Shown: piece by piece, positions 2,982 to 35,847 of the stretch
Numbering within the stretch: position 1 is the stretch's first letter
Layout: each line of letters begins with the position of its first letter
DNA from: Metamycoplasma hyosynoviae
GTDB lineage: Bacteria > Bacillota_I > Bacilli_A > Mycoplasmatales > Metamycoplasmataceae
Assembly: GCF_004365165.1 (NCBI RefSeq)
Contig: NZ_SOCH01000002.1
Coordinates: 62,001-126,000 of the forward strand
Length of the DNA stretch: 64,000 nucleotides
Direction: 5' to 3'
Position numbers and translations under genes: made by a program
Notes under the pieces: generated by a model
What the model was told of the DNA's origin: nothing
Databases searched by the model: none
Seen by the model: only the letters and a program-made list of their open reading frames with translations

Positions 2982-5501
2982 TTATTTGGCTTGTTTTTCT
3001 TCTAAAAGCTTTTGATAAAATCCTAGTTTTTCTTGATATTCTTTAAGATTTTTTTGCTTTTCAATAACAAATTCTTTCGAAGCTTTTTCAATGAATTTAG
3101 GATTATCTAACATTTTCTTATTGAAAGCAATTTCATCTTCAGCATGTTTTATAGCTTTTTGAATATCAGCGATTTCTTGTGCCTTGGCATTTTCATCTTG
3201 TTTAACATAAATTGTAGCATCAATTAATTTGATTGCAAAGTCAGTATTTGCTTTCATATCAAAATTTGTCATCTTACGAATTATTTCTTTAGAAAGTTGT
3301 GAGATAGTAAATTCATCTGATATATCAAAGTACAAGATTTCTGATTTTGAAATCGCTCTGCTTTCACGATATTTACGAAGTTCAGTGATTAATTCAATTA
3401 ATGTATCAATTTCTTTATGACTTGGTGAAGTGTATTCCGCAAAGTTAATTGATTTATATAAATAAAGTTCTTCTTTATATACATTTTCAAAAATATAATC
3501 AGTTATAAATGGCATAAATGGATTCATCATAATTAAAATTTCTTTAAATATGAAATGCAAGAAAATGTCATTATTTTTGAATTTACAGAATTCTAGATAT
3601 CAAGAAGAAAAGTCGTTTACAACAAATTCATAAATATATTTATAAACAACTGCAAATTCATATTTTTCCATATTTTTATTAACAAGGTCTTTTGTTAATA
3701 AAAATCTATTTAATATTCAAATATCGAAATTATCAATTACTTCTTTGAATTTAATTTCATCGCTTATTTTAACTGGCTTAGTTAAAATCAAACGAGCAAT
3801 GTTTCAAAGTTTATTTAAAAATAGTTGCGAGCTTTTGATTTTATCAAGACCAAAGTTTATATCTTGTCCTGGACTTGAATTAAATATTAAAGCCATTCTT
3901 AATGCATCAGAACCATAAGTGTCAATTATTTCAATAGGATCAATTCCGTTTCCTAATGACTTAGACATTTTTCTACCTTGTTCGTCACGAACAAGTCCAT
4001 GAATTAATACATTTCTAAAAGGAGCTTCGCCTGTGAAATAAAGTGATTGGAAATACATTCTAGCAACTCAAAAGAAAATAATGTCATAAGCTGTTACTAA
4101 AACATCTGTTGGAAAGTAGCGTTCTAATTCTTCTGTATTTTTAGGTCAACCTAAAAACATAAATGGAGCAAGCGCACTACTAAATCAAGTATCTAAAACA
4201 TCTGGATCTTGAACTCAGCCTTCACCAGGTGAAGTTTCTTGAACTTTTATTGCACCTTCATTATATCAAGCTGGAATACGGTGCCCTCATCATAATTGGC
4301 GACTAATGGTTCAGTCATAAACATTTTCCATTCATTTTACAAGAACATCTTCAAAACGACCTGGAATAAAGTTAACTTTATTAGCTGATTGTAAGTGCTT
4401 TAATAAATCCTGTGAAAGTTTTTGCATTTTAACAAATCACTGATGCTGCATCAAAATTTCAATAGGTTCATCACTTCGTTCGCTATATCCTACATTTGAA
4501 ACTATGTCTTCAACTTTTTCGATAAAACTAGCATCTTTTAAATGTTTGAAAATTTTTTTACGTGATTCTTGACGTTCTAATCCTTCAAATTCACCAGCAA
4601 CTTTATTTAATTTCCCATTTTTGTCAATACATTCAATTATTTCAAGTCCATTTTCTTGGATGATTGCAATATCATCAATTGAGTGTGCTGATACTTTCAT
4701 AATCCCTGTACCAAAAGCTGGATCAATTAACTTAGAAGCTACAACAGTAAGTTCTTTTTTAGTTAATGGGTGAATTATTTTTTTGGTTTTTAGTTCGTTA
4801 AATCTGCTGTCTTCTGGATTAAGTGCAATAGCAACATCTGAAAATAAAGTTTCAAGTCTAGTTGTAGCTATTAATAAATGATCCTCAGAATCTTTTATTG
4901 GATATTTAATGTAATACATTTTTTGAGGAGTTTCTTTATTAATAACTTCAATATTAGAAAGTACTGTTTGAAGTTTAGGATCTCAATAAATTGGTTTTTT
5001 AGCACGATAAATTAAATTATTGTTGTACATATCAATAAAAGCTTTTATAACAGCTTCATTTGATTTTTCATCTAATGTAAAACGCTCAGAAGTATAATCT
5101 AGTGCAAGTCCCAACTTATCTCATTGGCTTGTGATGTTAGCTGAATATTCATCTTTTCATTTTCACATTTCTTGTAAAAATTTTTCGCGACCCAATGTAT
5201 ATTTATTTAATTTCTTTTTAGCAAGTTCTTTTTCAACCTTAGCTTGAGTTGCTATACCGGCGTGGTCTTTTCCGGCTAGATATAATACATCATAGCCTTC
5301 AAGTTTTTTATATCTAATAATAGTGTCTTGAATATAAGTATCAAGTGCATGACCTATATGGAGTTTACCCGTAATATTAGGAGGCGGAACTATAATGGTG
5401 AATGGTCTTTTTACTGGATTATGAAATGAAAAGTATTTATTTTCTTTTCATTTTTGTTGGCGTTTATTTTCAGTTATTAAGTGATTATAATTCTTATCCA
5501 T
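2982..5501 (-). CDS. valS: Valine--tRNA ligase
   Basis: ValS charges tRNA-Val with valine in the cytoplasm. The class I signature is present as [11 protein letters not shown] about 45 residues from the start and as KMSKSLGN around 3970. The CP1 editing domain includes the [12 protein letters not shown] stretch and the C-terminal Arg-tRNA-binding coiled coil is Lys/Glu-rich. Length is about 839 aa, normal for the family. Several conserved tryptophans (WFSSAL, WGHRIPAWY) are TGA codons. ATG 5501 is chosen over ATG 5507 because the AAGGA box sits about 9 bases before 5501 but only 3 before 5507. The upstream ATPase-like frame is in the same phase and has no stop before valS, so a fused product is formally possible; the internal RBS suggests separate initiation. 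Confidence 0.95.
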
Positions 5502-9916: not shown

Positions 9917-10207
9917 CTATGTAGCTTTTACCTTAATTTTCCGAAAAAGAAAATAATGAAAAACTTGCAAATTTATCATGATAAAAATTTAATTTTTAGT
10001 GAATACTATTGAATTTAAAAATTGAAATTATGGGATTTTTTAGAAATTGCAAAAACTTATAATATTTAAAGTCTTTTTTATTCATAAAAGTAAGGTAAAA
10101 AAAATAATGCTTATATAAAGCCAAATTTTCTTATAAAATTTATATATTGCATTTATTTTCACAAATAAATGACAAATAAAATATTATGAGGAAATATAAC
10201 TAAATTT
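9917..10207. other. Divergent intergenic region between ddaH and a plus-strand lipoprotein
   Basis: No gene is seen. It should hold promoters for both directions. The plus-strand gene has a GAGGAAA box at 10188-10194, about 13 bases before its ATG, which is a longer spacing than usual. Confidence 0.4.
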
Positions 10208-12994
10208 ATGACTAAACAGAGTAAGATAATTTTATTATCTTCATTAATCACCCCCCCCACTTGCATTCCTTTATTAGTAATTTCATGTACTAATCAAGAC
10301 CCTACAAGTGAAATTGAAAAAGTTAAAGTTTCTGCAACTTCATTAGATAAATTAGCTAGCGAAGTAACTGATTCAGATATAAAAATTACTGGTTATCGTA
10401 CATCAGTGTTCACTGCCACTCAAACGCACCAAGTTAGTGCCACTGATCCAACCACACTAGAAGTTCTAGTAGAATTAAAAAACATTAAAAAGGGCACTAA
10501 GGCACAAAAAGTCTTTCCTATTAAGGGCTTTAAGGCCGATTCCACCGAAGAAATAAAAAATCTTTTAGCTACAGAGCTTGAAAAAATTAGTGGCGTTACA
10601 GTAGATAATCACACTGATAAAATAGCTAACACTATTGTTGCAAGCGACATAAAAATTACTGAAACTTCAACTATTGACAAAAACACTTTTGAATTTTCAA
10701 TAAATCCAAAAGTTGATAGTAAAGATAAAACCAAGCTTAATGTTACAATCAGACTAAAACATAAGCAAAGTGGAGTTTTATCAAAAGCAAAAAGCTTTTC
10801 AATTGAGGGTTTTAAAGCACTTACAGCCGAACAAGAAGAACTAATTAAAAAGCTTAATACTGCGTCAAGAAAAGTTACTGTTGATGTTGATAACAAAGCA
10901 AATATGTTTGCAAAAGAAGTTACAGAAGCAGATTTAAAATTCACAATCCCTACAATTTCAGGCATCATTGATGATCCCAATAAATATGAGATAATAGAAA
11001 AATCTTGATCCGTAAGTAAAACAGATTCAAAAAATCTAGAAGTATATTTCCACTTAAAAAACAAAGAAAATAATTTAGTTTCAGATAAACGTAAATTTGA
11101 AATTAAAGGTTTTAAAGAAGCTGAAGCTTCTACTCCCGAAGAAAAAGCATTGCAAGATGCATTAAATGCTGTTAGTTTATCATATGAAGGCGGCAAAGAA
11201 GTATTAGATAAAACTGATGCTGGTGATTTAGCAATTACTAAAGTTAAACTAGAAAATCAAAAAGAAGGTTTCGAATATAGCCATAAATTCAAAAATGATA
11301 ATCCAAGCAAGGTTAATTATAATGATGGATTTAGAACTGTAGTAATTACTATCAAAAAAGGTTCAAAATCACTTTCAAAAGAAATTAATCTTGAATGCTT
11401 TAAATCAGATTATGATGTAATCATAAAACAAAGAGAAAAAATCAAAAATATTGATTTATATCAAACCATTGAAACCAAAAATCTTGTTGAATCATTATTA
11501 ACGGGTCAAAAAACTGAAATTGATATATTCTATGATTTTAAAGAAAAGAAATTTTATGATAAAAAACATGATGATCCCGATAAAAAGCAAATATTAGATT
11601 TATCAAAAATAAGTTTTGAATTTGGAACTACTTTTGGAAGAAGCAAATTAATCAAAGTTATCGATAATAAATATAAAGCAGCTATAACATTAGCTAAAAG
11701 TTATAAAGTGGATAATAAATGAAAATACATTTATGATACAAAACAAACTGAAACTAACGAACTAAGTTTTGAAATTATTGATCAAAATGCGATAGATAAA
11801 GTTGCAGAAGATGCTAAAACTAAATTTGATTATCCTAATAAAAAAGATATATTTGTAAATACAGCTGAACAAAGCAATATTATTTTGCCTAATGTGAAAC
11901 TTCAAAATATTGCAGTTAAATTCATTATCAATAAATTTGAAAAAGACTCTGAACATTCAAAATTGGTTTTAACATATCAAGCAGAAATTGAATATAAAGG
12001 TACAAAATTCACTTCTAAATCAACCAAAACTGAAATAACCGGATTTAAAGCAGATGAATTAGGTAAAGAATTTAATGGTTTGACAGTAGATTATGATAAT
12101 AAAGATCAAGTCGAAGCTGATAAAGCAGAAGATTCAAAATTCAAACTATTAAAAGGAAGTGAAACATATAATGCACCTTCTGGAATTACTAAAAAAATAG
12201 AAGTTTTAGAAAAAGATAAATATAATGGAAAAGTTAAAGTAAAAGTTATTTTAACTAAAGATGGTAATAATGCTTCAAAAGAATTTACAGTTGAAGGATT
12301 TAAAAAAGTAAACTTTGATTTTAATAGTATTACTGCTGATAGTTTAACAATTGAATACGAAGGTATCACAAAAACTGAAGTTTTACCTACATCTATTACA
12401 AAGTTAAATGTTAACATTACCGTAAAACCCGAATATAAAGATGCTATCGAGGTTCAAGATTTCGAATTAACTGATGCTAATAATACTGCTGGAAGTTTAA
12501 AAATAAAAATCACTATAAAAAATCTAGTTGATAATTTGCATCCTACTAGAATAATTGAAAAAGATGAAAGTGGTTTCAAAACATCAACAGGTTCTACAAA
12601 AGAATATAAACTAAAAGAATTATATGATTTATCTGTTTCAAAAAACTTATTCAAAGTTGATACATCAAAGGAAGATAATATTATCGAATCATTTAATAAA
12701 GTAACAAATAATGGAACAAAAATTGCTTATCTAGCAATTAAGGATAATGTAATTCTTGAAAAAAATAAGGGTAATAAAATAGATGGACTTTCAATTTCTG
12801 ATGCCTTAATAAAGGGTAAAGTAAATACCCACGGAACAAATGAACAAAACATTTGCAAGCATGAAGATAAAGGTAATGCTAAAGGCGTTTCACTTATTAG
12901 AGAAAACAATAAATGAATAATTAAGTGAAGATTATTAATAAAAGATAATAAACTTGATGACGAAATATTTGAACAAATAATATTTGAAAAATAA
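10208..12994 (+). CDS. Variable surface lipoprotein with repeated domains; C8 tract in signal peptide
   Basis: This is a 928-aa predicted surface lipoprotein. The signal peptide starts MTKQSKIILLSSLITPPTCI and ends in a lipobox LLVISC at about residue 27. The mature part is a string of roughly 90-110-residue beta-rich repeats, each closing with a GFK motif (IKGFKADS, IEGFKALT, IKGFKEAE, ITGFKADE, VEGFKKVN), as in Lipoprotein_17-type variable surface proteins. Several TGA codons encode Trp. A run of eight C (10251-10258) codes for part of the signal peptide, so gain or loss of one C would abolish expression. It lacks the C-terminal cap shared by the 19.5-31 kb family and ends WRLLIKDNK...IIFEK. 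It is followed by a strong terminator. Its ligand or role is unknown. Confidence 0.85.
10251..10258 (+). repeat. Homopolymeric C8 tract inside lipoprotein signal peptide
   Basis: Eight consecutive C in a very AT-rich genome encode Thr-Pro-Pro-Thr in the signal sequence. The current length is in frame. Such tracts are classic slipped-strand switches of mycoplasma lipoproteins. Confidence 0.85.
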
Positions 12995-19551: not shown

Positions 19552-22383
19552 TTACTTTTTTCAGAAATCAACTATATACTTTTCAGAACCACCATTAAGT
19601 TTAAATTCGATAAAGATTTTTATAATCCCCCCCCCGGTTCCATCGGTCTCAACTTGTATTTGACCATAATTTCCAGAATCATCAGCTGCACGAATATGCT
19701 TTTTAAATTTTCCTCATTTTTCGTTAAATAATATTGATTTACCTATTATTACTGGATTTTTATCTTTTCTAGATTTTTTTAATGTTCAACCATTTCCATT
19801 ATTATTTTCTTCAAATCTTCTATGCCTAGTATTTGCTCCATTAGTTTCAAATCAATTTTTGATTGCATTAACATCATTTTGATAATTTGGTTCATTTGTG
19901 TCAACAGTAAACAATAATCCTTGTGCGGCCGCTTCTTCAATAGTTGTAGGATCGCTTGCTTTAAATCCCGATAATTCAAAACTTTTTTCTAGTATATTGG
20001 TTGTATCTGTAGCATCTTTAACTTTGACAGTTAATTTAGCTTTACCATTAGCCAACGGTTTAAGTGCAACAGTTTCGAATTCTATATTATTTGTCGATAA
20101 GAAAATTTTGTATTGTGAATTGTCTTTTGAATTGGTTATTACTTTTTGTGTTAGATCAGTATATTGTGCTATATATTCAGCAACCGTTTGTTGATCACTT
20201 ATACCATCTAGTTTTAAATCTTCTTCAAAAGCTTTAGGCAATTTATTCTCTTCAAATCCTAAAATTTCGTTGCTAAAAACTTTATTATGTGTAGCTTTTA
20301 CAATTTTTATTTCTAAGACACCGATTTTACTATCGCTATCTTTCTCTTTTAATGATACTTCTTGAATCTTAGCTCCTTGGCCTTCAAGTCAAAGTGAAAA
20401 TTCTGTTGAATCAATTTTAAATTCGATTTTTTCTTTTAATTTAGTTCCAAATTCACTTAAATATTTTTTAACTGTTTTGCCTGACTTTTCTTTTAAATCA
20501 ATTTTAGGTGTAGCTGATTGAAGTTTTGTAAATATTTCATCCAGGGTCAAATCAGCAAGAAACCCAACAATTTCTATTGATAATGACTTAGTTTGACCCG
20601 CTCTTTTTAGTGTAATTTCTAAAATACCGACATTGTTTGAGCCAACTTTTTGAGTTAATGTTGAACTTTCAACTTGAGTATTGTGTGAAGTTAATCATTC
20701 TACAAAGGTCTTAGATTCAATTGTATTATTGATTTGGTTATGAATAACGCCATTAAATTCTTCTGCAAATTGGCTAACTGTTTTAGTTTCTTTTCCAAAT
20801 AAATCAATCGGAGGATTTAACCCTTTAATTTGCGTGATTATTTGTTCGAGAGTAGTATCAGCTTTAAATCCTGAAATTTCACTAGTTATACTTTTTGTCT
20901 CAGAACCCTTCTTTATTTCGATTTCTAAAATTCCGACTGTTCCGCCGTCTTCTTTGGCTTCAAGTGTAACTAGATTAATCCATGCATTATTTTTTGCTAA
21001 TCATTTTTCAAATTCAATAGTTTCTACTTTAAATTGAATTTGTTCTTTTAAATCCGCGTTATGTTCAGCAACATATTGCGCTATTGTTTTATCGTTTTTG
21101 TCTTTTAAATCAAACGATGTAGTTTCTGCATTAATTTTAGCAATGATTTCGTCTAACGTTAAATCTTGTTCAAATCCTTGAATTTCTTGTGATAATGTTT
21201 TTGTTTCTAAATATTTTTTTAGTTTTATTTCTAAAATACCTATTTTCGAGTCGTTAACTTTTGGTTTTAAATCTACACCTACAATTTGTGTATTTACCGA
21301 ATTTAGTCATTCTTCTAATGATTTACCTTCAACTGAAAAAATAATTTGGGATTTTAAATCACTTGCATATGTAGTAGCATAATCATTTACTGTTTTACCA
21401 TCTTTATCTTTTAAATCAATTGGAGGAGTTTGGCTATTGATTTTGGCAATTATTTCTGTTAAAGTAATGTCTTCTTTAAAACCAGAAATTTCTTGACTTA
21501 AAATTTCAGAATCAGTTCCTTTTTTAAGTTTAATTTCTAAAATTCCCGACTTTCCATCACCATCTTTTGGTTTTAAAGAAATACTTTCAATTTCTATTCC
21601 TTGTTCACTTAAAAATGCTTCAAGCGATTTTTCTTCAATTTGAAATACAATTTGGGATTTTAAATCACTTGCATATGTAGTAGCATAATCATTTACTGTT
21701 TTACCATCTTTATCTTTTAAATCAATTGGAGGATTAACTGATTTAATTTGTTCTATGAATTTTGTAATTATAGTAGTTATTTTAAAACCAGAAATTTCAG
21801 TTTCCATAGTCTGTTTTTGTTCTCCTAATGAAAACTCAGATTTTAAAATAGCAATGCCTTGTTTTGCATCTTTAACTTCCAATGTGAATTTCGCGAATAA
21901 TTCATAAAAATGCAGAAATTCTTGCATATTTTTACCAATTGAAGTTTTTAATGTAATTTTTTTAGATAAATCATTTTCAAAATTAGTTTTATAATCTTCA
22001 ACTTTATATTTATCTTTTTCTTCTAAATCAATTGTTTTAATTTGCTTCAATATTACTTCAAGTTTTCTTGCAAAACCTGAAATTTTTAGATTGAATGGTT
22101 TTTTTGTGCCTTTATAATTTGGTGTTATACTTAATTCTACTTCACCAATTGCATCATCAAATTTTATAATTTTAGCAGTATACCTTACCTTATTTGATTT
22201 AGATTTTAATGTAATTTTTTCTAATACATCAGAAGCAAAGAATGTTGACTTAGTTTGTTTAAATTTGATATCAATATCCTGTTCATAATCAATTTTCTTA
22301 CAACTAACCAATAGTGGTATTCCTATTATCGGGGTTATAAGTGATCCTGTTAGGGTTAATAAATGTAACGACTTTTTCTGCAT
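19552..22383 (-). CDS. Modular variable surface lipoprotein with near-identical tandem repeats and a G9 tract
   Basis: This 943-aa lipoprotein starts MQKKSLHLLTLTGSLITPII and has lipobox LLVSC. It begins with the N-terminal cap shared by the cluster (DYEQDIDIKF..KSTFFASDVL..GEVELSITP), then at least seven repeats closing with SGFK or equivalent. Two of these are nearly identical (IDLKDKDGKTVNDYATTYAS twice). It ends in the shared C-terminal cap (GLLFTVDTNEPNYQ...WGKFKKHIRA...KYIVDFWKK). The coding strand carries nine G at 19635-19627, giving Gly-Gly-Gly 24 residues from the C-terminus; at this length the cap is in frame. A one-base slip would rewrite the last beta strand. Length variation through the 85-bp repeats is also possible. 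Function beyond surface exposure is not known. Confidence 0.85.
19627..19635 (-). repeat. Homopolymeric G9 (C9 on plus) tract near the 3' end of a lipoprotein gene
   Basis: Nine consecutive C on plus within codons for the C-terminal cap. It is the longest C/G run I noticed in the window and is expected to be mutation-prone. Confidence 0.85.
21343..21427 (-). repeat. 85-bp perfect direct repeat, copy 1
   Basis: Identical over 85 bases with 21649-21733, offset 306 bases (102 codons), inside the coding sequence of the 19552-22383 lipoprotein. Confidence 0.9.
21649..21733 (-). repeat. 85-bp perfect direct repeat, copy 2
   Basis: Second copy of the repeat at 21343-21427. Recombination between the two would delete or add exactly one 102-residue unit in frame. 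Confidence 0.9.
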
Positions 22384-22394
22384 TTTATTTCTCT

Positions 22395-22421
22395 CTATAA
22401 TTTTTATTACTAAAATTATAG
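22395..22421 (-). promoter_or_regulatory. Inverted repeat with TATAAT-containing arms before a lipoprotein gene
   Basis: Ten-base perfect arms CTATAATTTT / AAAATTATAG with a 7-base spacer lie 12 bases before the ATG at 22383. Each arm contains a TATAAT. It may be a promoter/operator or an mRNA leader hairpin. Confidence 0.4.
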
Positions 22422-22483
22422 TTCATTATTCCTCATATATTGCCATTAAGTCGATAAAAAACATCTTGTATTAAGGTAAATAT

Positions 22484-24463
22484 TTATTTACTATTTTCAG
22501 ATTCTTTTTCTCAGAATACTACTTCATAAACTTTGTTTGAACTATCATTGACAAGTTTAAATTTAATTAATATTTTTGTTATTTCGCTTCCGTTTTTGAC
22601 AAAATGCATTATGGCATAATTTTCATTATTTGATTCAGATAATATAACTTCATTGTATTTTAAATTCAAATTTATGTCATCAAAAATTAATCAATTAAGT
22701 TTAAATGAAATATTCTTCAAATCCTTTTCGATGATTTGAAAATTGTCATTTGAATCTTGAATAATTTTTCCAGAATATATATTTTTTTTATTTGCTCAAT
22801 TTTTTAATTTAATAATTTCTTCTGAATATTCATTATTGTCTTTCAAGGGATATAACAATTCATTTTTTTCAGCAAGTTCTTTTGCTTTTTTATTTAATTC
22901 ATTTGTATGTTTTTTAGAATGAAAACCACTAATTTCAAATTCTTTACTAAAACTTGTTGGTGTGAATTTATCCGATGTATATTCAATTGTTAATTTTATT
23001 TTTGTATCATCTTTTTCAGAAACTATAAGTTTATTTTTTCTTAATTCAATTTGATAATCTTTGAATTTCTTATTATATTGATCAAAGTTCTTAATAAAAG
23101 CTTGTAATTGTGAATCTTTATACTTATCTATAAATGCTTGTGATTTTTGAGTTCTATCATCAATTTCTATGTTTTCATTTTTATTTACAATATCTTGTAT
23201 AGATATTGATTTAAATTTATTACTTGCTTCATAATTAGTAGTTATCTCTTCATTATTTTCCAGATTTTTTATAGTAACAAATATTGAATAATTTCCAGTT
23301 GTGTAGTTTTTAACTTGGATTTTTACATTCTTAATTTCTATTTTTTTAGTTTTTAACTCACTAACTAATTTAGCATTATCAAAATTTTTTGCAATGATTT
23401 TTGATTTTAAATCATTGTGTTGCATCTTATATTCTACTGGATCTAAGTTTTCTGTTCCTTCTAATGAAACATTAATTAATACTTCATCAAGTGCTTTTGC
23501 AATTTGATCTTCTTTAAATCCTGATACATTTCCATCAACTTCTCTAAGTTTATTATTTGATTTATTTTTTAAAATAAATTTAACTGTTCCAGTACCTTTA
23601 GCAGCAAAAGTGATTTGAAGTTTCACATTGTAAATTTCGATGTCTTTATTTTCTTCTAAATATTTTTTCAAATCTTTGCCTATTTTATGGAACTTCAACT
23701 TTTCTTTTAAATTATTACCAAATTGTTTTTGATATTGAGAAATTGTATGTTTTTCTTTATCTACTAAATCAACTGTACCAAGTTCATTAATAACTTTATC
23801 TAATAAAGTATCAGCCACATAAGGTGAGGGAGTTATGTGGGCATATATTTTCTTAAACCCTGAAATTTCATATGCTATTTCTTTTACTTCATTATTTAAT
23901 TCAAACTTTATTTTTAATACCGCAATACCTAATTCTTTATTTTTAGTTTCTAGTTTTGGTGTTGAAACTATTTTATGGCGAGTTAAAAACTCTTGCATTT
24001 TCTTACCATTAATAGTAATTTTATTTGCTAGATCACTACCTTTAAAACTATCAACATATTCTTCTATTGTCTTAGTTTGTTTTTCGCTTAAATCAACATT
24101 TTGAATTTTATGTAAAATTTCTTCAAGTGGTGTCATCTTATTTTTTTTAAAACCATCAAAAGTTAAATTGAATCTTTTTTCGACTTTACCTTTATAAATG
24201 GGAGTAATCATAAGTTCAACTATACCTTTTGTATCATCAGCTTTTACTATACTTAGGTTGTATTTAACTTTCAAAGAAGCAGATGTAGCTTCTAAATATT
24301 TCAAAATTTCAGAAGCTAAAATTTCATTTTTATCTCTTTTAAAAGAAATTTTTATATCTTTTTCGTAGTTAACTTTTCAACAACTTATTGAAAGTGTTGA
24401 AGCAACAATTGGTGAAAATAACATCATTCCAATTAATAATGAATTGTGTTTATTTTTATTCAT
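22484..24463 (-). CDS. Modular surface lipoprotein, family member 2
   Basis: This 659-aa lipoprotein starts MNKNKHNSLLIGMMLFSPIV with Cys28 after SISC (next Trp is TGA). It follows the cluster plan: the N-cap (NYEKDIKISFKRDKNEILAS...GIVELMITP...FDGFKKN), then several repeats ending in GFK, then the C-cap with YAIMHF and a terminal NKVYEVVFWEKESENSK. A strong AAGGAG box and a TATAAT at 24504-24509 precede it. Repeats here are more diverged than in its downstream neighbour. It is 100 bases from the 22383 gene with no clear terminator between them. Confidence 0.85.
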
Positions 24464-24503
24464 TTTAACTCCTTTTTATGGTTAATTTTTTCAAAACCTA
24501 GAT

Positions 24504-24509
24504 ATTATA
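24504..24509 (-). promoter_or_regulatory. -10 box of family member 2
   Basis: A perfect TATAAT on the minus strand lies about 41 bases before the ATG at 24463. Confidence 0.45.
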
Positions 24510-24890
24510 AATAAATTTTTGTTACGACCAAAAATTGGCAGTAATAAAAATCAATATACAGTATTGAATTTATAATTTTTAATCCAACTCTTTATTTGCT
24601 ATGCAAATAAAATTAAATTAATAGTATGTTAGAAGTACATTAGTTAATAATTATTTATGCAATTATCGAAATACTTAAAATGAAGTATAGGGTAGATTAA
24701 AAACATATTATAAGTACATTATATTTTTTTCATATGTAATAAAAAAACACTTTAATAAAATGCAAATTTCTCAAAACATATATTTAAAGTAGATTAATGA
24801 ATAATTAATTTGTATAACTCTCAAAGATCATAAGTATGTTGAAAATAAACTCAAAGTATATTAGTAAATAATTATCTTTTTATTGAACAT

Positions 24891-24920
24891 ACATTAAAAA
24901 ATAAAAAGCCAAATGGCTTT
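24891..24920 (-). terminator. Terminator of family member 3
   Basis: A 6-bp stem AAAGCC / GGCTTT with a four-base loop, followed on minus by TTATTTTTT, begins 4 bases after the stop codon. Confidence 0.7.
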
Positions 24921-24924
24921 AAGT

Positions 24925-27342
24925 TTATTGATTGCTCTTATTTCAAAATTCTAATTCATAGATTTTGTTGTTGGGTTCTTTTGCTATTCTGAATCTAATA
25001 GTTATTTTTGTAATTTCTCCACCTTCTTTTTGAAAATACATTCTTGCATACTTTTCTTTTACATCATTAGGATGTTTTACAACATCACTATATTTTCAAT
25101 TATTGTCAAAGTTATTGAAACTTAATGAATTAATTCATTCGGCTGGTTCTATATTATTTAGCCTTATTTGTCATAAACCGTTTAAATATATTAATATTCC
25201 TTCTTTATTATATTTCTTGTATCATTTTTTCAATCTTTCAACATCAGATTTATATTCATAATGCTTTCTATCAACTACAATCAATAAATCTTTATCAGCT
25301 GCATCTTCAAACGATGAAGGCTCATACTCATATTTTTTAAACCCTTTTATTTCATATTCTTTTTCAAATGATTTATTTGTGAACTTTTCTGAATCATATT
25401 TTAATTTTAATTTGACTGAATTTTGTTCATTATTATGAGATACATCACCTATTGATATTTTTATATTGTAATCATTTACTTTATTACTATAGAAAACATA
25501 ATTTTTTATATTTCTTGGTAGTTCTTTTTCATATTTTTTAATTCATTTTTTAGCAGTTATGGTTTTATCATCAACATCAATATTTGATATATGTTTTTCA
25601 ACAATTTCTTGTATTGATGTTTTCTTGAAAAAATTTATTGGGTTTATTTCTTTTGTTTGGCTTTCTGTAGAATTTAGTTTCGAGATAGTTATTGATAATT
25701 TATATGTGCCATTTTCAAAATTAAAATCATCCAAAATTTCAACTTTTTCTAAAGAAATGTTTCTCTTTTTTAATTCTCCAATTAATTGGGCATTATTTTT
25801 ATCTTTTGTAACCAATTGATTCATTAGATTATTTTCATTATCTTTTCTATATTCAACTGAATCTTTCTTATCTGCTTCACTTAATTGAATTTCTTTTAAA
25901 AGAGTATCAAATGCTTCTGATAATATATCACCTACAAAAATATTTTTTAGTTCAAATGATTTATTAATCGAACTCCCATTATTTTTTGAAAGTTTAATGT
26001 TCAACATTCCACTTTTAGGTTCATTTTCTTTTTTAAGAAGTTCAATTATAGGATTAATATTATTTTCTTCAAAATATTTTTTTAGATCTTTAATTTGTTC
26101 ATTACTTGATTTTATTTTTGATAGTAAATCAAGATTTTCATTTTTATATTCTTCAAATGTTTTCCCAGATGTATTTTCCAATGATAATTCACCTAAATTT
26201 TCAATAATTTCTGAAAGTGAAATATCTTTGACAAAGCCTGCAATTGGATAAGTTCTTTCGACAAATTTATTATTTTTGCTAAATACTATTTTTAAGGTCG
26301 CTTTTGTGCTATCTTCTGAATTTGGGATTAGTTCAATTTGAATTTTTATTTCATTATTAGTTAAATATTTTTCTACACTATCAATTTTTGGATTATTAGA
26401 TTTTAATTTTTCAGTAGTTAAATTTTTATTAACTAATTTGTAATTTGCAAATGTTGAATTTCTAATATCCTTAAGTGAGACATCTTTTAATTCATTAACA
26501 TAATCATTCAAATCCAATGTTTTCTTAAATCCTGAAATATCAAAACTTTTAGTTATTGTCTCACTATCTTTTTTAAATTGAATTTGTAGTTCAGCTTTTG
26601 TACTATCATTAGATTTTTCTTTTATTGAAGTTTTAACTTCAATACCATTTTTATTCAAATACTTTTGAATAAAATTTGTTTCATTAGAATTTAGGGAAAT
26701 TAACTGTGATTTTAAATCAGGAAATTTATTCAAATATTCATCGATGGTTTTATTTTCTTTTTCTTTTAAATCAAGGTTAGTAATTTTTTCAACAACATCT
26801 TTTAAATTAGTTTTTGAAACTGATTTAAAACCGCTAAAGGTTAAATCAAATGTTTCTTGTGATCTTCCATTATGAATAGGTGTAATTCTAATTTCTAGAT
26901 TGCCCTGACTATCATCAAAATTTAGTATTTCATAATCATATGTTGTTTTTCTAGATTTAGACAGAATTTGAATTTCAGATGAAATTTGTGAAGGCAATAT
27001 AGAAGATTTATCTTTTTTAAAGATAATTTGCAAATCATTTTTGAAATCTAATTTAGATGTTTCTTTTTGATTATCTCCGCGAGTTTCTTTTAACTTTTGT
27101 TCTTGCTCTTCTTGTGGTTTTGTTTCTTGAATTTCTTTTTGATTTTTTTCTTGTGAATCTTCTTTTATATCCTCTTGGGATGAGTTTTTCCTGGGAGGCT
27201 TATATTCTGGGAACTTTTCAAGTTCTTTATTGTCTTTTTCAATATTTAAATTATTTTTACAACTTACCAAAATTGGTATAGAAACAATTGAAATAAATGA
27301 ACTAATACCAAAAATCAGTAAACTTTTATTCTTCAATTTCAT
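24925..27342 (-). CDS. Modular surface lipoprotein, family member 3, with charged linker
   Basis: This 805-aa lipoprotein starts MKLKNKSLLIFGISSFISIV with lipobox ILVSC. Unlike its relatives it has a Glu/Lys/Gln-rich spacer of about 65 residues (SQEDIKEDSQEKNQKEIQ) before the N-cap, which would hold the folded part away from the membrane. Repeats closing with GFK follow (SGFKSVSK, SGFKKTLD, AGFVKDIS), then a C-cap ending KIYELEFWNKSNQ. The conserved aromatic and Trp codons of the cap include several TGA. A perfect 9-bp palindrome lies 44 bases upstream of the ATG. Confidence 0.85.
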
Positions 27343-27385
27343 ATGTTAATTCTCTTGTTTTTTATGTATAAAAGTAATTTATTTG

Positions 27386-27406
27386 TTTGTATTTTATAAA
27401 TACAAA
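27386..27406 (-). promoter_or_regulatory. Palindrome upstream of family member 3
   Basis: TTTGTATTT-TAT-AAATACAAA is a perfect 9-bp inverted repeat 44 bases before the ATG at 27342. It is well placed for an operator or promoter element, but no regulator is identified. Confidence 0.4.
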
Positions 27407-27504
27407 CCTATAACCTCAAAAAAACGGGAGAATTATAACATCATTTATTTTCCAGAATAAAGAAAATTAAATTGTTTCATCAAGTATAAAAAGTCAAAAA
27501 TAAA

Positions 27505-27542
27505 TGCAAAAAAATATAGTAGAGAGATTTTCTACTATATTT
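27505..27542 (-). terminator. Terminator of the frameshifted lipoprotein gene
   Basis: A 12-bp perfect stem AAATATAGTAGA / TCTACTATATTT with a 7-base loop is followed by seven T on the minus strand, 10 bases after the stop. Confidence 0.85.
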
Positions 27543-27551
27543 AAGACTAAA

Positions 27552-29226
27552 TTATGATTTTGTTCAAAAATCTACTTTATATACCTTATTGCCACCATCT
27601 TTAACTTTAAACTCTATGTAGATTTTTTCAACTTCGTTAGTGCCCGATTTTGTTTCAATATTAATTTGAGCGAACTTGCCGTTACCTTTAGCTGGTTTTA
27701 TAACATCTTTGTATTTGCCTCATTTTTCATCAAATTTAATAGATGTACCAATATTAACTATAATTGCACTAGTACCACTTTTTGACTTCAAAGTTCAAGT
27801 TCCGCTTGATTTTTCATCTAATCTTCTACTACTTTCTAGTGTGTTTGGCTTACTAAAAAAATCTTTAATAGCTTCTACATCTGCATCATAAGTAGACGCT
27901 GTCTTATCAACTGTAATTAATTTGCCTTGTTCAGCAGCTTCCTTTGCATTCTTTGGCTCAGTTGGTGTTGGTGGTTGTGGAGGTTCTGGTGTAGTTGATT
28001 TTTCTTTAAATCCATCTAATACAAATGTTTCTTCAAGAACTTTACTTGGATCAGATGTACTTTTTACTTTAACTTTTAAATTAGCTTTTGTACCACCAGC
28101 TGATTCTAATGTTACTGTATCTAATTCAATTTCATTTTCTTCAAGATAATTGGTATATTCTTCATTTGATTTTGTAGTAGTTTTAACTTGGATTTTTAAA
28201 TTAGGATGTTCTTGCTTATAATCATCAACAGTTTTATCTGATGAAATACCATCAAGAGTTAAAGGTTCTTCAAAAGCTTTATTTAATTCAATTGAAGGTT
28301 GTTGCGCATTTTCTTTAAAACCAGTAATTTCTTTTGTGATTGTTTCGCTTTTAGAATCTTTAGTAATTGTAATTTTTAAAATTCCAATTTTCGGGTCATT
28401 TGATTTAGCTTCTAAAATAATATTTCCGATTTCAAAACCTTCATCTGTTAAATAATCATTTCAGTTTTTACCTTCAACTTTACAAGTGATTTTATCTTTT
28501 AAGATAGAACCATATGCAGTATTATAATCATCAATTGTTTTATCAGATTTATCTGATAAATCCATTGGGGGCGTAGCACTAAGAATTTTGTCAATTACTA
28601 ACGTAAAGGTATTATCAAATAAAAATCCAGATATTTCAAATTCTTTAGTTTCTATTTGATCACCTAATTTAAATTGAACATTTAAAGTTCCAATACCTTT
28701 TGCTAAATCCTTAATTTTTAAATTGGCATTAGCATCTAATTTGTATTTGGTCAAAAAAGCAGATAAAGTTAAATCTTTTGAAGTTTTAACTACAACTTTG
28801 TCTTTTAAAGTGGTAGAAAATTTAGAAATATAATCATCAACTTTGTACTTTTCTTTTTCAGTTAAATATAAAGATTTAACATCTTTTAAAACTTCAAATA
28901 ATTTAATTTTAAAACCAATTAGTTTTAATTCAAAAGCTGTTTGAAGTTTATTATTTTCAATTGGTGTAATTTTTACTATAGCTTCACCAGTTTTATCATT
29001 AGAACTAACTAATTCAACTTCGTATTTTACCTTACCTGATTTGGAACCAAACTTAATAATACTTTGACATTCAGAAGCAAAAATAGTAGATTTATCTTTT
29101 GTAAAATCTTCTTTTACGTCTTTTTTTATAATCAATATTTTTGCAACTAACTAATAAAGGTGTGCTTATTATTGGTATTAGAATGCTAGTATTCAAAACC
29201 AATAAAGCCGAAACTTTTTTAGTCAT
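27552..29226 (-). pseudogene. Modular surface lipoprotein, family member 4, frameshifted at an A7 tract (phase-off or broken)
   Basis: The ATG at 29226 opens a full signal peptide (MTKKVSALLVLNTSILIPII, lipobox LLVSC) and the cap start KNIDYKK, but the frame then shifts at seven A (plus-strand T7, 29121-29127) and stops at TAA 29092 after 44 residues. The body in the other frame continues the cap as DVKEDFTKDKSTIFAS and runs through repeats and a Pro/Thr-rich linker (PEPPQPPTPTEP) to the C-cap ending NKVYKVDFWTKS at 27552. Six A would restore one frame, exactly matching relatives (IDYQKDV, IDYEQDI). No Shine-Dalgarno is visible before the ATG. The downstream coding part has no stop, so the break looks recent or reversible; an assembly error is the main alternative. 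Confidence 0.8.
29121..29127 (-). repeat. A7 tract (T7 on plus) at the frameshift site
   Basis: Seven A on the coding strand separate the signal-peptide frame from the body frame of the 27552-29226 lipoprotein gene. Confidence 0.8.
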
Positions 29227-29352
29227 AATTTTTTTTACTATTAATATCTTTTCGTAAATTTTTTTGTCATTTTTTCTTCTTGTATAAAATTATACCTTTT
29301 AAAATCTAAAACAAAAGGTAAGCATAGCTTAAATAGATAAAAAACAATTTTT

Positions 29353-29390
29353 GGAAAAACTAAAAATCAGACCGATTTGATCTGATTTTT
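29353..29390 (-). terminator. Terminator of family member 5
   Basis: A 10-bp perfect stem AAAAATCAGA / TCTGATTTTT with a 9-base loop lies 13 bases after the stop codon, followed by AGTTTTT on minus. Confidence 0.85.
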
Positions 29391-29402
29391 AAAGTTAATT
29401 GA

Positions 29403-31343
29403 TTATTGTTTTGTTCAATAAACTACTTCGTAAATAGTGTCGCCGTTGTCTACTAATTTAAATTTAATAGTTATTTTAGATATTTCATTATTTGATGATG
29501 TTTCAAAATACATATGAGCATATTTTTTATTATTTTCTGTATCTAATCTTATTAAATCTGAAAATTTTCAACCATTTCCAAAATCATTAAATTTCAAAGC
29601 ACCAAAGTAATCTGGTGAGGTTTTGACATCTGGTCTTATTAACCATTCTCCACCATTTGAAGGATATATTAGTCCTGGTTTTTTATTTTTATTCCATCAT
29701 TTTTTTATAGTTTCTAGACTAGTTTGATATTGAGGGTCATTAGTTTCAGGAACAATTAGTAAACCTTTTTCAGCTGCTTCTTTTGGCGTTTTAGGATCTG
29801 ATTCTGGTTCTTTAAAACCTTCAAAAGCAAATTCTTTTGTAAATAAACTAGTTTTAAATTTAGATGATTCAAATTTAATTGTTAATATAACTTTCTTTTC
29901 TTGCTCATATGGAACTATTTTCTCTTTTTTTAGAGATATATCATAATCATAAAATTTATTAGCATATTCTAAATAATTTGACAAAATATCTTTTAATTCT
30001 TTATCTCCATATTTTGTCATTCAATGCTTAACAGTTAAATTATTTTCTTTTATTTCTAATTTAAAATCTTTAAATTTATTAGTTATATTGTTTATTTTAA
30101 TATTCTTAAAGTGATTTGTTCCAGTACGTGTTCTATATTGTGTTTCACCCGAACCGATTTTTTCAAGAACTATTATTACTTTATAAATTCCATCACTTAA
30201 ATTTTCGGCTTCAACTAAAACATCTTTTAAAGAAACTTGTTTCTTTTTTAATTCTTCTTTTAACTCTTCTTTAGTTTTACCATTTGCAAGTAATTTTTCT
30301 TTTAAATCAGTAAATTTCTCTTTATATTCAACGCCATCATATGTTTCAGCATCTTCTAACGAAACTTCTTTTAAAATACCGTCAAACACTTCTGAAAATA
30401 CATCAGCTACAAAAACGTCTTTTAACATATAAGTTTTTTCAACAGTTTCTGTACCTTTTGCAAATTTAATATTTAAATTTGCACTTTTTGAATCATTATC
30501 AATAGGCATTAAATAAATTTGTACATTTATTTTTTCTTTTTCCAGAAATTCCTTCACATTAGAAATAGTTGTACTACTTGATTTTAGCTTTGAAATTAAA
30601 TCAGTGTTTTCTTTTAAATATGCTGATATTGATTTATCTTTAGTGCCTTCTAAAGATAAATCTTGAAGTCTATCTACAAATTCTTGTAAACCTATTTCTT
30701 TAGTAAAACCATCAATTAAATAATTTTTAGTAATAGAAGTTTTGGCTTTTGTAAACACTATTTCTAGGTTGGCTTTTGTATTATCTAAAGGTTTTGCTAT
30801 TAATTTTAATTGTGTGTTAATTTCATTTTTATCTAAATAATTTTGGATGCTAGGAGTCTCGGTTCCAAAATCATCTGATGAAATTAATTGTGGTTTTAAA
30901 TCGGGATGTTCTGTTTTATATTGGTTTAAAGTTTTGCCAGCTTTATCTTTTAAATCAATGTTTGTAATTTTGTCTAGCAAGTCTTTTAAATTATTTTGTT
31001 CTTCTATTTTTTCAAGTTTTTTAAAACCCGGAACTTTCAATGTAAATGAAGGTTGGTTTTTATTTTTATGAAATGGAGTAATTACTAATTGAATAGTACC
31101 TTCATTATCATCTGTTTTTTCAACTTTAAAGTTATACTTAACTTTACCAGAAGTAGATAATAATGAAAGATTGTCTTGAACTTCACTTGCTAAAAGTGTA
31201 GATTTATCTTTTTTAAATTGAAAGTTGACATCTTTTTGATAATCTATGTTCTCACAACTTACTAAAATTGGAGCTGACACAACTGGAATAATAGATCCAA
31301 ATGCTAATAATGATAAGCTCCTTATTTTCTTATTTTTCTGCAT
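29403..31343 (-). CDS. Modular surface lipoprotein, family member 5
   Basis: This 646-aa lipoprotein starts MQKNKKIRSLSLLAFGSIIP with lipobox ILVSC. It has the N-cap (NIDYQKDVNFQFKKDKSTLL, GTIQLVITP, VPGFKK), then repeats whose junctions read IDGFTK, and LKDVFVAD, then the C-cap (GLLIVPETNDPQYQTSLETI ... IYEVVYWTKQ). The repeat starting NIDLKDKAGKTLNQYKTEHP is closely related to repeats in family members 1 and 3, so sequence exchange is plausible. Confidence 0.85.
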
Positions 31344-31489: not shown

Positions 31490-32263
31490 TTAATTATTAA
31501 GATTAAGCATTATCACATCTAAGATAGTAAAATCAGTTGCAACTTCACCATTTTCATTGTGATATTTTCTAGTTTTAGTAGTTATTTTCAAGTTATATAA
31601 ATTGTTCTGAGTTTTTTCAAAACTTCATTCTAAATTAGGAATATCTTTATAATCAAGCAAATTAATTTTTTCGCCACTACTTGAAATAAATCCTTCTGCT
31701 TGAAGTAAATAATTTTTTAAATTAGATGTTACATCATCAATTTTCTTTTTTTCATTGTTTAATTTTTCTTGATTAATTTTGATTTTGAATGTGTTAGCTT
31801 TAACAGCAAAAGGAAGTTGGAAACCTTTACAATTAATTTCATATTTAATTAATTCTTTATTTTCTTCTTTTAATGTCATATTGAAACTTAATGTTCCAAG
31901 TAAGTCATCATAAGAAATTATTTCAAGGCTTTTAATTTGCTTATTATTCACAAATTCATTTTCATATTTTTTAATGCTATCTGCATTAAATGAAGCTAAG
32001 CCTAATTTATTTAAATGAAGGATATCAATTAATTCTACAAATTTATCAATACTAATACCATTTTTAGTTCCACCTTTTGGAACTATAATTTCTTTTTTGG
32101 GTTCATCTGCTTTTTTAATTTTACTGTCAGCAATGATTTTCTTTTCTTCATTACCTTTGTTAATTTTGCTTTGTGTTTTAACACAAGAAATTAAAATTAT
32201 AGCAGGAGTAAAAACTACTGGTGTAAGTGAAAAAATAATTGAAATTTTCTTAGAATTTTTCAT
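31490..32263 (-). CDS. Small lipoprotein related to the cluster
   Basis: This 257-aa lipoprotein starts MKNSKKISIIFSLTPVVFTP with lipobox ILISC. A Lys/Glu-rich linker follows, then one domain resembling a single repeat unit of the neighbouring family (KIKSLEIISYDDLLGTLSFN ... INCKGF in place of SGFK). It lacks the C-cap. It may be a minimal or reduced member of the cluster. Function is not known. Confidence 0.75.
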
Positions 32264-32562: not shown

Positions 32563-35088
32563 TTATTTTATGAATATGTCTTGGAAATATTCAAGCCCGT
32601 CATAAACTAATGGCTTATAAATATAGTTTTGATAAACAATTTTAGAGAAACTATCTGTTTGGACATTATTTTCAAAACTTAGTGTATAAGAAATTAAGTT
32701 GTTAATCTCATTAATTAAATGAAGCGTATCTGATGTAGATAATTTATTTAAATAATCATTTAAGAATACTTCAAATTTATTTTTATTAATGTCAAGTTCT
32801 TCTACATTAATTATTTTTTTAATTAATTCAGGTTTTACTTCCAATAATTTCTTCAAGTTTTTAAATACGGCTTGATTTCCATTTGCTTTAACTATTTTAT
32901 TAAATAGTTTAACCATTTCATAGTTATTAATGGAAAGTAGTTTTTTCAAATAATCATTGCTGCTACTATTAGACAAAGTAAAATCAATGTGTTTATAAAT
33001 GGATTTATTTTTTTTGAAATATTCATCATATTTATAATAATCATCTATTAAAACAATTTTTGGTTTTAGTTTTGGATGCAACTGGTTATAAATACTTTCG
33101 ATTGTTTTGACAGATTTTTTTATGCTTTGACTCAAATTAAATGCAGCAATTGGAATTTGTCATTCTATGTTTTGTGTTTTATATTCTGGATGCTTTGCAT
33201 AAAAATTTTCAATTATGTTTGTAATATTAGATTTAATATTTTCAAAATCAATTGATTTATATTTTTCAAAGTTATTTGAAAAAGCTTTTACATCATTAAT
33301 CTTTTGTTTGTTGTCATACAAACTAAATTGTGAATTATTTTCAATTTTTCCATTTGTGTTTTTCAAAACTATTTGATTATTTATTGGAACAAGCGCATCT
33401 TTTAAATTTTCATAATTAGATGAAAAAATATTTTGAGCATTGATTTTAATATCACTTGGTGCTTGACTCATTCATATTTCACTATTTTTTTGAAGCAGTG
33501 AAATAAATACATAAGGATTTATTACACGATTAATTAGGTTTTGAAAAACTATTGTTTCAGGATTAAAATCAATGTTTCCTTGTTTTTTTGTTAATTCTTT
33601 AGCATTACTTCCATAGTAAAGGCAAGCAAATAAATCATTGAAATAAAATTCATTTGCTGACGGAAGATAATTTAAAAAGATATTAGAATGTAATTTATAT
33701 TTTTCGAATTGACGGGTGTAATTTAAATTAAATTTATCAAAATTTTTGAAAATAAATTCTTTTTGATCAGCATTAAGTGTTGAAACATTTAAATTTGAAA
33801 CTAGATTTTGTTTGAATAAGTTGTATTGTTGAATGTTATAAGTTTCATTAGGTGAAGGAATTTCATTGTATTTATAAACAATTTCATTTAAATGTTTCAG
33901 TTCTTGTCATTTCAAATCTGAACTATAGAAATTTTCATTTCTATATAGTTTAGTTTCAGAAGAAGAATTTTTTGCTATATAGTAATATGAAGCATAAAGT
34001 GTTGAGTCATAAGTTCTTCCATATTCATAAAATCAAGCAAATGATTTATCAGAAAACAAGCTATCATTACTTCTTTTGGCATATTTTTCTTGCAAATAAT
34101 CATAAGGAATTGCATCCATATAATTAGAATAAATGAATAAATTATTGAAAAAATCTATGTTATTTATAGGGCTAGAAATATCAAAAGTAATTGCAGAATT
34201 GCCCACCAGCTTATACTCTTCTATTTTTTGATAGTTGAAAAAGTTTTTAGTATCTACGTTATAACTTTTGAACATATCATAAACCGAATCACCATTAAAA
34301 TAAGGATTATCTTTTTCATAATACTTATCTTCTAATTTTTGCATTTCAGTTAAATTGTTTTCTTTAATAAATTGTTGGCGAAAAGCTTTATTTTGGAGAG
34401 CTGATCTAAATAAACCTAGTCTAAAATCTATGGCACTTACTTGATATTTTTTATTAACTATTTCACCACGATGATTAACCCAGTAATTATTGTGATAAGT
34501 ATTTCCATTAGTTAAATTCAAAGTAATTTTTTCAGCAGTTTTTAATTCTTCTAAAAAATTAGGATGGTTAATTGAATTTTCTTTAGCTGATGGAATGAAT
34601 AAATAAGGGCTATAAAACCCTAATCCTTTATCTTTTTTGGGATAAAAAAACTCGGGTTTTTGGTTAGATTCTAGGGTTTCTTCATAAATAGTTTTTTTAA
34701 TATGGTCATTTTCATAAGCTTTACCTTGCGTTATATTACCATATAAATCAGTGATTTGTGGATCAAATGAAATTCATTTGGCATATTCAGTTTTGTATCA
34801 TAACTCAGTGGGTTTTGTAACTATATTATCTCTAAAATCAATTTCAGGTTGATTTTGAGAAGAAAGACGAAATAATTTAGCTCCTGTTGCTAAATTTAAA
34901 GCATTTAATTCTTGACTATGTGAATTTGCATAAGCAGAAAAGTAGTTTTTTGCCTTATTAGCATGATTAAAATAATAAATTAGATTATCACGATCTGGAT
35001 TGTAGTCATTAGTGCAACTTAAAGCTACAAGAGGAGCAGAAATTGTAGCAACTGAAGCTAATAACAATAATTTTGCTTTGAGTTTCAT
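32563..35088 (-). CDS. OppA-like substrate-binding lipoprotein
   Basis: This 841-aa lipoprotein starts MKLKAKLLLLASVATISAPL with lipobox VALSC at about residue 25. A block near 34430-34500 (NNYWVNHRGEIVNKKYQVSAIDFRLGLFRS) corresponds to the W-x-DG..vtA.DF..s..r block of SBP_bac_5 peptide-binding proteins, and downstream the aromatic-rich middle resembles the first gene of this window. Several Trp codons are TGA. No permease or ATPase gene flanks it, so it would have to work with a transporter encoded elsewhere or act as an orphan surface protein. The OppA assignment is by motif, not by alignment. Confidence 0.6.
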
Positions 35089-35148: not shown

Positions 35149-35847
35149 ATGATAAAAAAGAATAAATTTATTATACTTGGTTTGGTTTGCAATGTTCCAA
35201 TAATTACTAGTTTTTTTGTGTCGTGCAAAATTGCAAAAAAACCAACCTGAAAATTAAATAAAAATTATTCTTTTTATAATAAAAATTTCATAAATGCTCA
35301 GTTTGATGATGATAACATACAAGCAGAAGATGAAAGTAATTTAAAAATTATAGGTAACTATCAAAATAGTTACAATATTTCACGTGAACAATTATTGGAA
35401 ATTTTTAGTTCCTTTAATTTGAAACTTACAGATTATGGTAAATCATTTACTTCTACTGAAATGTTTGAAAAACTTAGAGAAATAGTAGGAAAAAAAGTAA
35501 TTGTTCCAGGAAAATACTTCCAAAGTTTAGCGGCTGGACGTAAAACTTTTGAAGAACTAATGAAAAACGATCCTGAACTAACCAAGATTTTTACCGGAAC
35601 ACTTCCTGATATAACTAAATTCAATAATTATTATAGTGTTTCTAATTTTTGGGAAATTAGATATCAGTTTTTACCTCCAAGTAATGAAAAGCAATCATTT
35701 TTATGACTACGAGCTACTTTTTATCACACAGATAATACGCACATTGACCGTAGTGTTTCTGAAAATGTTCATATAAATCGTCATGATGTTGGAGTTCCTG
35801 TTGGACCTGCCTTTTATTGCAAAATAGATGGATTTAAAACAAAATAA
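35149..35847 (+). CDS. Small plus-strand lipoprotein of unknown function
   Basis: This 232-aa lipoprotein starts MIKKNKFIILGLVCNVPIIT with lipobox FFVSC. Two TGA codons encode Trp. The mature part is about 205 residues with no motif I recognise. No Shine-Dalgarno precedes the ATG, and a TATAAT at 35137-35142 lies only 6 bases upstream of it, so translation may start on a leaderless or near-leaderless transcript, or from another promoter. It diverges from the OppA-like gene and is closed by its own terminator. Confidence 0.75.

What the first reader, a model, noticed from the sequence alone, without database searches (positions are those of the whole stretch)
19552..31343. Cluster of modular lipoproteins: shared N-cap, variable repeats, shared C-cap
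Five adjacent minus-strand genes share an N-terminal cap (DY..D(I/V)...F..DKS...AS, ITP), a variable number of roughly 100-residue units closing with GFK, and a C-terminal cap (LL...YQ...I.kW...GkfxxxI...V.FW.K). Caps appear more conserved than the middle. This suggests a scaffold whose repeats are shuffled between genes, and the C-cap may be an adhesive or assembly module in its own right.
Basis: partly seen in the sequence, partly recalled or inferred. Interest (0 to 1): 0.6.

Follow-up and report, generated by a model that had tools for sequence, protein, structure and literature searches.

The report
Stalked mycoplasma lipoproteins with shared tip
A mycoplasma carries a family of surface lipoproteins built as a lipid anchor, a stalk of 1 to 7 copies of a known ~100-residue domain, and a conserved end domain absent from Pfam and NCBIfam; the same end domain sits on unrelated stalks in related species, so it looks like a transferable tip, probably for binding or assembly.

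Summary
Five adjacent minus-strand genes (code 4, TGA=Trp) share an N-cap, 3-7 repeats and a C-cap, and two more members lie on another contig. The N-cap and repeats are divergent Lipoprotein_17 (PF04200) domains by Pfam, by profile comparison and by an AlphaFold2 model that matches the solved PF04200 domains. The C-cap is a separate, confidently predicted domain (pTM 0.83) with no PDB fold match and no Pfam or NCBIfam family. Profile searches found it in 17 genomes of two genera, at or within 10 residues of the C-terminus. It crowns PF04200-type stalks in most, and LMP/FIVAR-like helical stalks in five congeners. It is therefore a module in its own right. "Shuffled between genes" is not supported: repeats group by position, and N-terminal and C-cap trees agree. 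Repeat number changes by duplication inside genes (5-fold in g5; a three-unit block doubled in the C8 paralog). One 5' segment may be converted. Two switch-like tracts were seen: A7 after the lipobox shifts g2 out of frame (its paralog has A6), and G9 lies inside g5's C-cap. Best reading: N-terminally anchored, variable-length stalks presenting a tip. Adhesion is inferred, not shown.

The parts
29403..31343 (-). g1: lipoprotein, signal peptide/lipobox (LVSC), N-cap, 4 PF04200-like units, C-cap
31014..31247 (-). g1 N-cap (PF04200-type domain lacking the first helices)
   Evidence: 3jvc_C Z 6.9 on residues 30-114
29808..31013 (-). g1 stalk, R1-R4
29406..29807 (-). g1 C-cap
27552..29135 (-). g2 open frame: N-cap, 3 units, Pro-rich linker, C-cap; out of frame with its own lipobox
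29121..29226 (-). g2 signal peptide/lipobox frame, ending in the A7 run 29121-29127 (A6 in the C8 paralog); the shifted frame stops within about 11 codons
24925..27342 (-). g3: lipoprotein with charged linker, N-cap, 5 units, C-cap
22484..24463 (-). g4: lipoprotein, N-cap, 4 units, C-cap
19552..22383 (-). g5: lipoprotein, N-cap, 7 units (R2-R6 an expansion of one unit type), C-cap
19627..19635 (-). G9 run coding Gly-Gly-Gly inside the g5 C-cap; the other two frames stop after 4 and 10 residues
27555..27968 (-). g2 C-cap
24928..25329 (-). g3 C-cap
22487..22912 (-). g4 C-cap
19555..19953 (-). g5 C-cap

Best explanation
A species-level expansion of periscope-like surface lipoproteins. Each protein is held in the membrane by an N-terminal lipidated cysteine (inferred from the lipobox). 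It carries a PF04200-type N-cap and a stalk of 1-7 PF04200-type domains whose number changes by duplication or loss within the gene, and it ends in a conserved C-cap domain. Because the anchor is N-terminal, the C-cap is the part furthest from the membrane, so I infer it is the tip that contacts host, matrix or other cells, or joins proteins together. Repeat number sets reach and antigen. Slippage at an A run after the lipobox (g2) and perhaps at a G run in the C-cap (g5) may switch whole proteins or only the tip. Shown here: architecture, domain homology, C-terminal position of the cap, its occurrence on two stalk types, positional repeat phylogeny, and the two runs. Inferred: surface exposure, tip role, ligand binding, switching in living cells.
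For: PF04200: Pfam matches in g2-g5 (g3 E 4e-9, over cut-off); template-free model of g1 with pLDDT 82.8; Foldseek probability 1.00 to 3k63, 3jvc, 2krt; VIA Z 6.9/6.6/5.4 for the same entries. PF04200 is treated as a stalk domain of fibrillar adhesins in PMC9210967. C-cap: pLDDT 88.8, pTM 0.83. Cap profiles from separate sets agree: hhalign 98.3%, E 2e-14 for other-species caps versus window caps; 99.3%, E 3e-20 for those versus caps on helical stalks. Accepted matches end 0-10 residues from the C-terminus. Repeat tree by position, with 100/99 support for last and penultimate units. A7 versus A6 in otherwise nearly identical 5' DNA. G/C runs of 8 or more: 3 pattern matches in the window versus 0.01 expected; ten tracts genome-wide, most inside ORFs.
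Against: No ligand, adhesion or expression data. The C-cap resembles no known adhesive fold. Window caps and helical-stalk caps are linked strongly only through the intermediate set; direct comparison is weak (E 0.005). The A7 could be an assembly error. G9 is in frame and no isolate with another length was seen.
Confidence: 0.55

Rival explanations
1. The C-cap is only a structural end-cap that seals the last stalk domain against fraying or aggregation; binding is done by the variable stalk domains.
For: It is always at the end, and its secondary-structure order (helix, helix, three-strand meander) loosely resembles a repeat unit with an insertion. Stalk domains may themselves bind, as PMC9210967 notes.
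Against: No sequence relation to the repeats (hhalign E 0.11), and PF04200 solved structures do not appear among its listed fold matches. It also ends helical LMP/FIVAR-like stalks, which a cap fitted to a PF04200 stalk would not be expected to do.
Confidence: 0.2
2. The C-cap is an assembly or oligomerisation module that links lipoproteins to each other or to a partner complex, giving a fibrous surface coat.
For: Conserved while stalks vary; present in several co-resident paralogs.
Against: No partner gene or conserved interface identified; copy number per genome ranges from 1 to 7.
Confidence: 0.2
3. The repeats are a recombination reservoir shuffled between genes for antigenic variation.
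For: Lower synonymous divergence in N-cap and R1 (dS 0.23) than in R2 to C-cap (0.42-0.66) between g2 and the C8 paralog; 98-100% identical DNA over the signal peptide.
Against: Repeats group by position and gene tree; N-cap+R1 and C-cap trees agree; the best between-gene repeat identity inside the window cluster is 48%.
Confidence: 0.05

Closest known systems
Lipoprotein_17 / PF04200 lipoproteins of mollicutes (solved: 3k63, 3jvc, 2krt, Ureaplasma parvum Q9PRA0)
   Same: N-cap and repeats have this fold and, in part, this sequence profile
   Different: Repeats are divergent; the C-cap is a separate domain not covered by the family
Fibrillar adhesins / periscope proteins (PMC9210967)
   Same: Surface anchor, domain-repeat stalk of varying length, distinct end domain
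   Different: Lipid anchor at the N-terminus, so the end domain is C-terminal; no known adhesive domain; length variation shown between paralogs, not isolates
Mycoplasma hominis Vaa adhesin (PMC524362)
   Same: Conserved 5' part, variable number of ~110-residue cassettes, 5' poly-A run whose length sets the frame
   Different: Vaa is single copy with coiled-coil cassettes; here an alpha/beta stalk, a multi-gene family and a conserved end domain
M. hominis Lmp/Vmp large repeat proteins (PF04778; PMC524362)
   Same: A congener protein with a weak LMP-repeat match carries the same C-cap
   Different: The window's stalks are PF04200-type; whether M. hominis Lmp or Vmp itself ends in this cap was not tested
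M. genitalium P110 C-terminal domain (6se7, 5ox7 and others)
   Same: Weak fold similarity to R1 (Z 4.9)
   Different: Z too low to argue kinship; different protein architecture

Membership tests
PF04200 Lipoprotein_17 (N-cap and repeats) | Profile match over the curated cut-off | tested here: inconclusive
   Over cut-off in g3 (37.0 vs 22.4) and g4 (22.7); below it in g5 and g2; no match listed for g1 in the Pfam scan, though the six-frame genome search scored the g1 N-cap over cut-off (30.0 bits, G000:C1:93017-93226)
PF04200 Lipoprotein_17 (N-cap and repeats) | Same fold as solved members | tested here: met
   Template-free model; Foldseek probability 1.00 to 3k63/3jvc/2krt, VIA Z up to 6.9 over 83 residues
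PF04200 Lipoprotein_17 (C-cap) | Profile or sequence relation to the repeat | tested here: not met
   No PF04200 match in any of 16 caps; hhalign to repeats E 0.11
Fibrillar adhesin / periscope protein | Repetitive domain stalk | tested here: met
   3-7 units in the cluster, 6 and 1 on C8; PF04200 listed as stalk domain in PMC9210967
Fibrillar adhesin / periscope protein | Cell-surface anchor | tested here: met
   Signal peptide with lipobox Cys in g1, g3, g4, g5, g6, g7, by sequence only; g2's is out of frame
Fibrillar adhesin / periscope protein | Repeat number varies between strains | not testable with these tools
   One genome per species held; variation seen only between paralogs
Fibrillar adhesin / periscope protein | Adhesive domain | tested here: inconclusive
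   C-cap has no known adhesive family or fold match
Vaa-type adhesin | Coiled-coil cassettes | tested here: not met
   Units are alpha/beta in the model
Vaa-type adhesin | 5' poly-A run with ON/OFF length variants | tested here: inconclusive
   A7 vs A6 between paralogs g2 and g6; no within-strain variants available
LMP/FIVAR proteins | LMP or FIVAR repeats in the window genes | tested here: not met
   Not in the Pfam scan of the window genes; weak matches only in congener proteins

The most novel reading that the evidence does not exclude
The C-cap founds an undescribed domain family: a C-terminal tip carried by unrelated stalks (PF04200 and LMP/FIVAR-like) in two mycoplasma genera, and in one gene subject to on/off slippage at a G9 run that would remove its last strands while leaving the stalk in place.
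Probability: 0.3. Interest if true: 0.6.

Novelty: new variant of a known kind. Interest (0 to 1): 0.48.

Why it matters
Mycoplasma surface lipoproteins diverge so fast that their functional ends are hard to find. A conserved end domain shared by different stalks gives a defined target for ligand searches and structure work, and lets many unannotated lipoproteins be grouped. If the tip can be switched separately from the stalk, that would be an unusual form of phase variation.

Tried and rejected
Naming the organism: two genome-contig scans (C-cap alignment, OppA lipoprotein) returned no confirmed relative, so species and genus are not named. C-cap search with five rows gave only the own genome; iterating with added members opened the wider family. 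Cap matches in the middle of proteins (loci L135, L137, L139, L140, and a DNA-glycosylase-like ORF in L103) were set aside as false positives. g4 as a chimera of the two subfamilies: rejected, the trees are compatible. C-cap as a modified repeat: no sequence support. Fold libraries: no C-cap match (best Foldseek E 0.21, VIA Z 3.0). Promoter scan: 88 found versus 86 in shuffles, uninformative. Synteny: the closest congener by YebC (G013, 81%) has no such genes beside yebC.

Full report
Genome and code. The window uses TGA for tryptophan and is 24-29% G+C. It lies on contig C1 of an 870,663-base, 10-contig genome. The organism could not be named.

Architecture. With code 4 the five ORFs are intact except g2. 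Splitting at the GF motif gives N-cap, units of 94-113 residues, and a C-cap of about 135 residues. Unit counts are g1 4, g2 3, g3 5, g4 4, g5 7. Two more members on contig C8 have 6 units (g6, 852 aa) and 1 unit plus a long proline-rich linker (g7, 447 aa). Two other genes in the genome carry the N-cap without a C-cap match: 249 aa, and 1326 aa with about 12 unit matches.

What the stalk is. Pfam PF04200 (Lipoprotein_17) matches N-caps and some units. A template-free AlphaFold2 model of g1, on a 7-row alignment, has mean pLDDT 82.8 with low pTM 0.45, as expected for beads on a string. Foldseek gives probability 1.00 to the three solved PF04200 entries 3k63, 2krt and 3jvc. VIA-align ranks the same entries first, aligned to the N-cap (Z 6.9, 6.6, 5.4). 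PF04200 was used as a stalk domain in a survey of fibrillar adhesins (PMC9210967).

What the C-cap is. Folded alone it reaches pLDDT 88.8 and pTM 0.83, with no PDB match by Foldseek (best E 0.21) or VIA (best Z 3.0); a missing match does not prove a new fold. None of 16 caps scanned matches a Pfam or NCBIfam family consistently. A first search found it only in this genome. With more members it appears in 21 of 135 family genomes at E 1e-3 or better. Four of those matches lie mid-protein and I reject them, leaving 17 genomes: 11 of 24 in the own genus and 6 in genus g13. In these the cap ends 0-10 residues from the C-terminus. Profiles built from separate sets agree: other-species caps versus window caps 98.3%, E 2e-14; those versus caps on helical stalks 99.3%, E 3e-20. 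The direct comparison of the two ends of this chain is weak (E 0.005). In five congeners the stalk looks helical by sequence and composition, with a FIVAR match in one and an LMP-repeat match in another, both below curated cut-off. The window's caps form one clade with the two C8 caps (99/97), pointing to expansion in this lineage.

Exchange between genes. A tree of 30 units groups last units (g1R4, g3R5, g4R4; 100/99) and penultimate units (g1R3, g3R4, g4R3; 100/99), and places R1, R2 and R3 types of the second subfamily together. N-cap+R1 and C-cap trees are compatible. g5 R2-R6 are an expansion of one type, and g6 R4-R6 repeat R1-R3. For g2 and g6, dS is 0.23 in N-cap and R1 but 0.42-0.66 further on, and DNA over the signal peptide is 98-100% identical, against mostly 70-98% elsewhere in the aligned gene. 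That is modest evidence for local conversion.

Possible switches. In g2 an A7 run just after the lipobox puts the signal peptide out of frame with the body; the C8 paralog has A6 in the same context. This resembles Vaa, where 8 A is ON and 7 or 9 OFF (PMC524362). An assembly error is not excluded. g5 has a G9 run coding three glycines in its C-cap; the other frames stop after 4 and 10 residues. Runs of 8 or more G/C are rare by chance (0.01 expected in the window, 3 pattern matches seen); ten tracts occur genome-wide, most inside ORFs, including a type I methyltransferase-like gene.

How it likely works. The N-terminal lipid anchors the protein; PF04200 domains form a stalk; the C-cap is the far end. 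Tip function, binding and switching are inferences. Rivals are a structural end-cap or an assembly module; presence on helical stalks argues against a cap fitted only to PF04200.

Verdict. A new variant of a known kind (stalked, size-variable mycoplasma surface lipoprotein), with a C-terminal domain family not in Pfam or NCBIfam as the novel part.

Noticed in passing
window 10169-12994 (+), tract 10251-10258: 941-aa lipoprotein with a PF04200 match has a C8 run in its signal-peptide region; a paralog of the same length on contig C5 (L062 1578-4403, minus strand) has the matching run at 4314-4321, near its 5' end.
   Followed up: partly
L068 4023-4034: C12 run inside a 560-aa ORF that looks like a type I restriction-modification methyltransferase, a possible phase-variable modification gene.
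   Followed up: no
L097 1994-5974 (-): 1326-aa N-cap protein with about 12 unit matches and no C-cap match.
   Followed up: partly
window 32563-35088 (-): OppA-family ABC transporter substrate-binding lipoprotein (NF045850) next to the cluster, with small lipoprotein-like ORFs on either side (31490-32263, 35149-35847).
   Followed up: no
L149 1830-3050 (+): Congener protein with two near-identical helical repeats and a C-cap; its N-terminus looks like a membrane anchor without a lipobox.
   Followed up: partly
G008:C1:718707-721742 (-): Run of at least 12 equal-scoring PF04200 matches at 255-base spacing in a congener, suggesting a recent tandem expansion.
   Followed up: no
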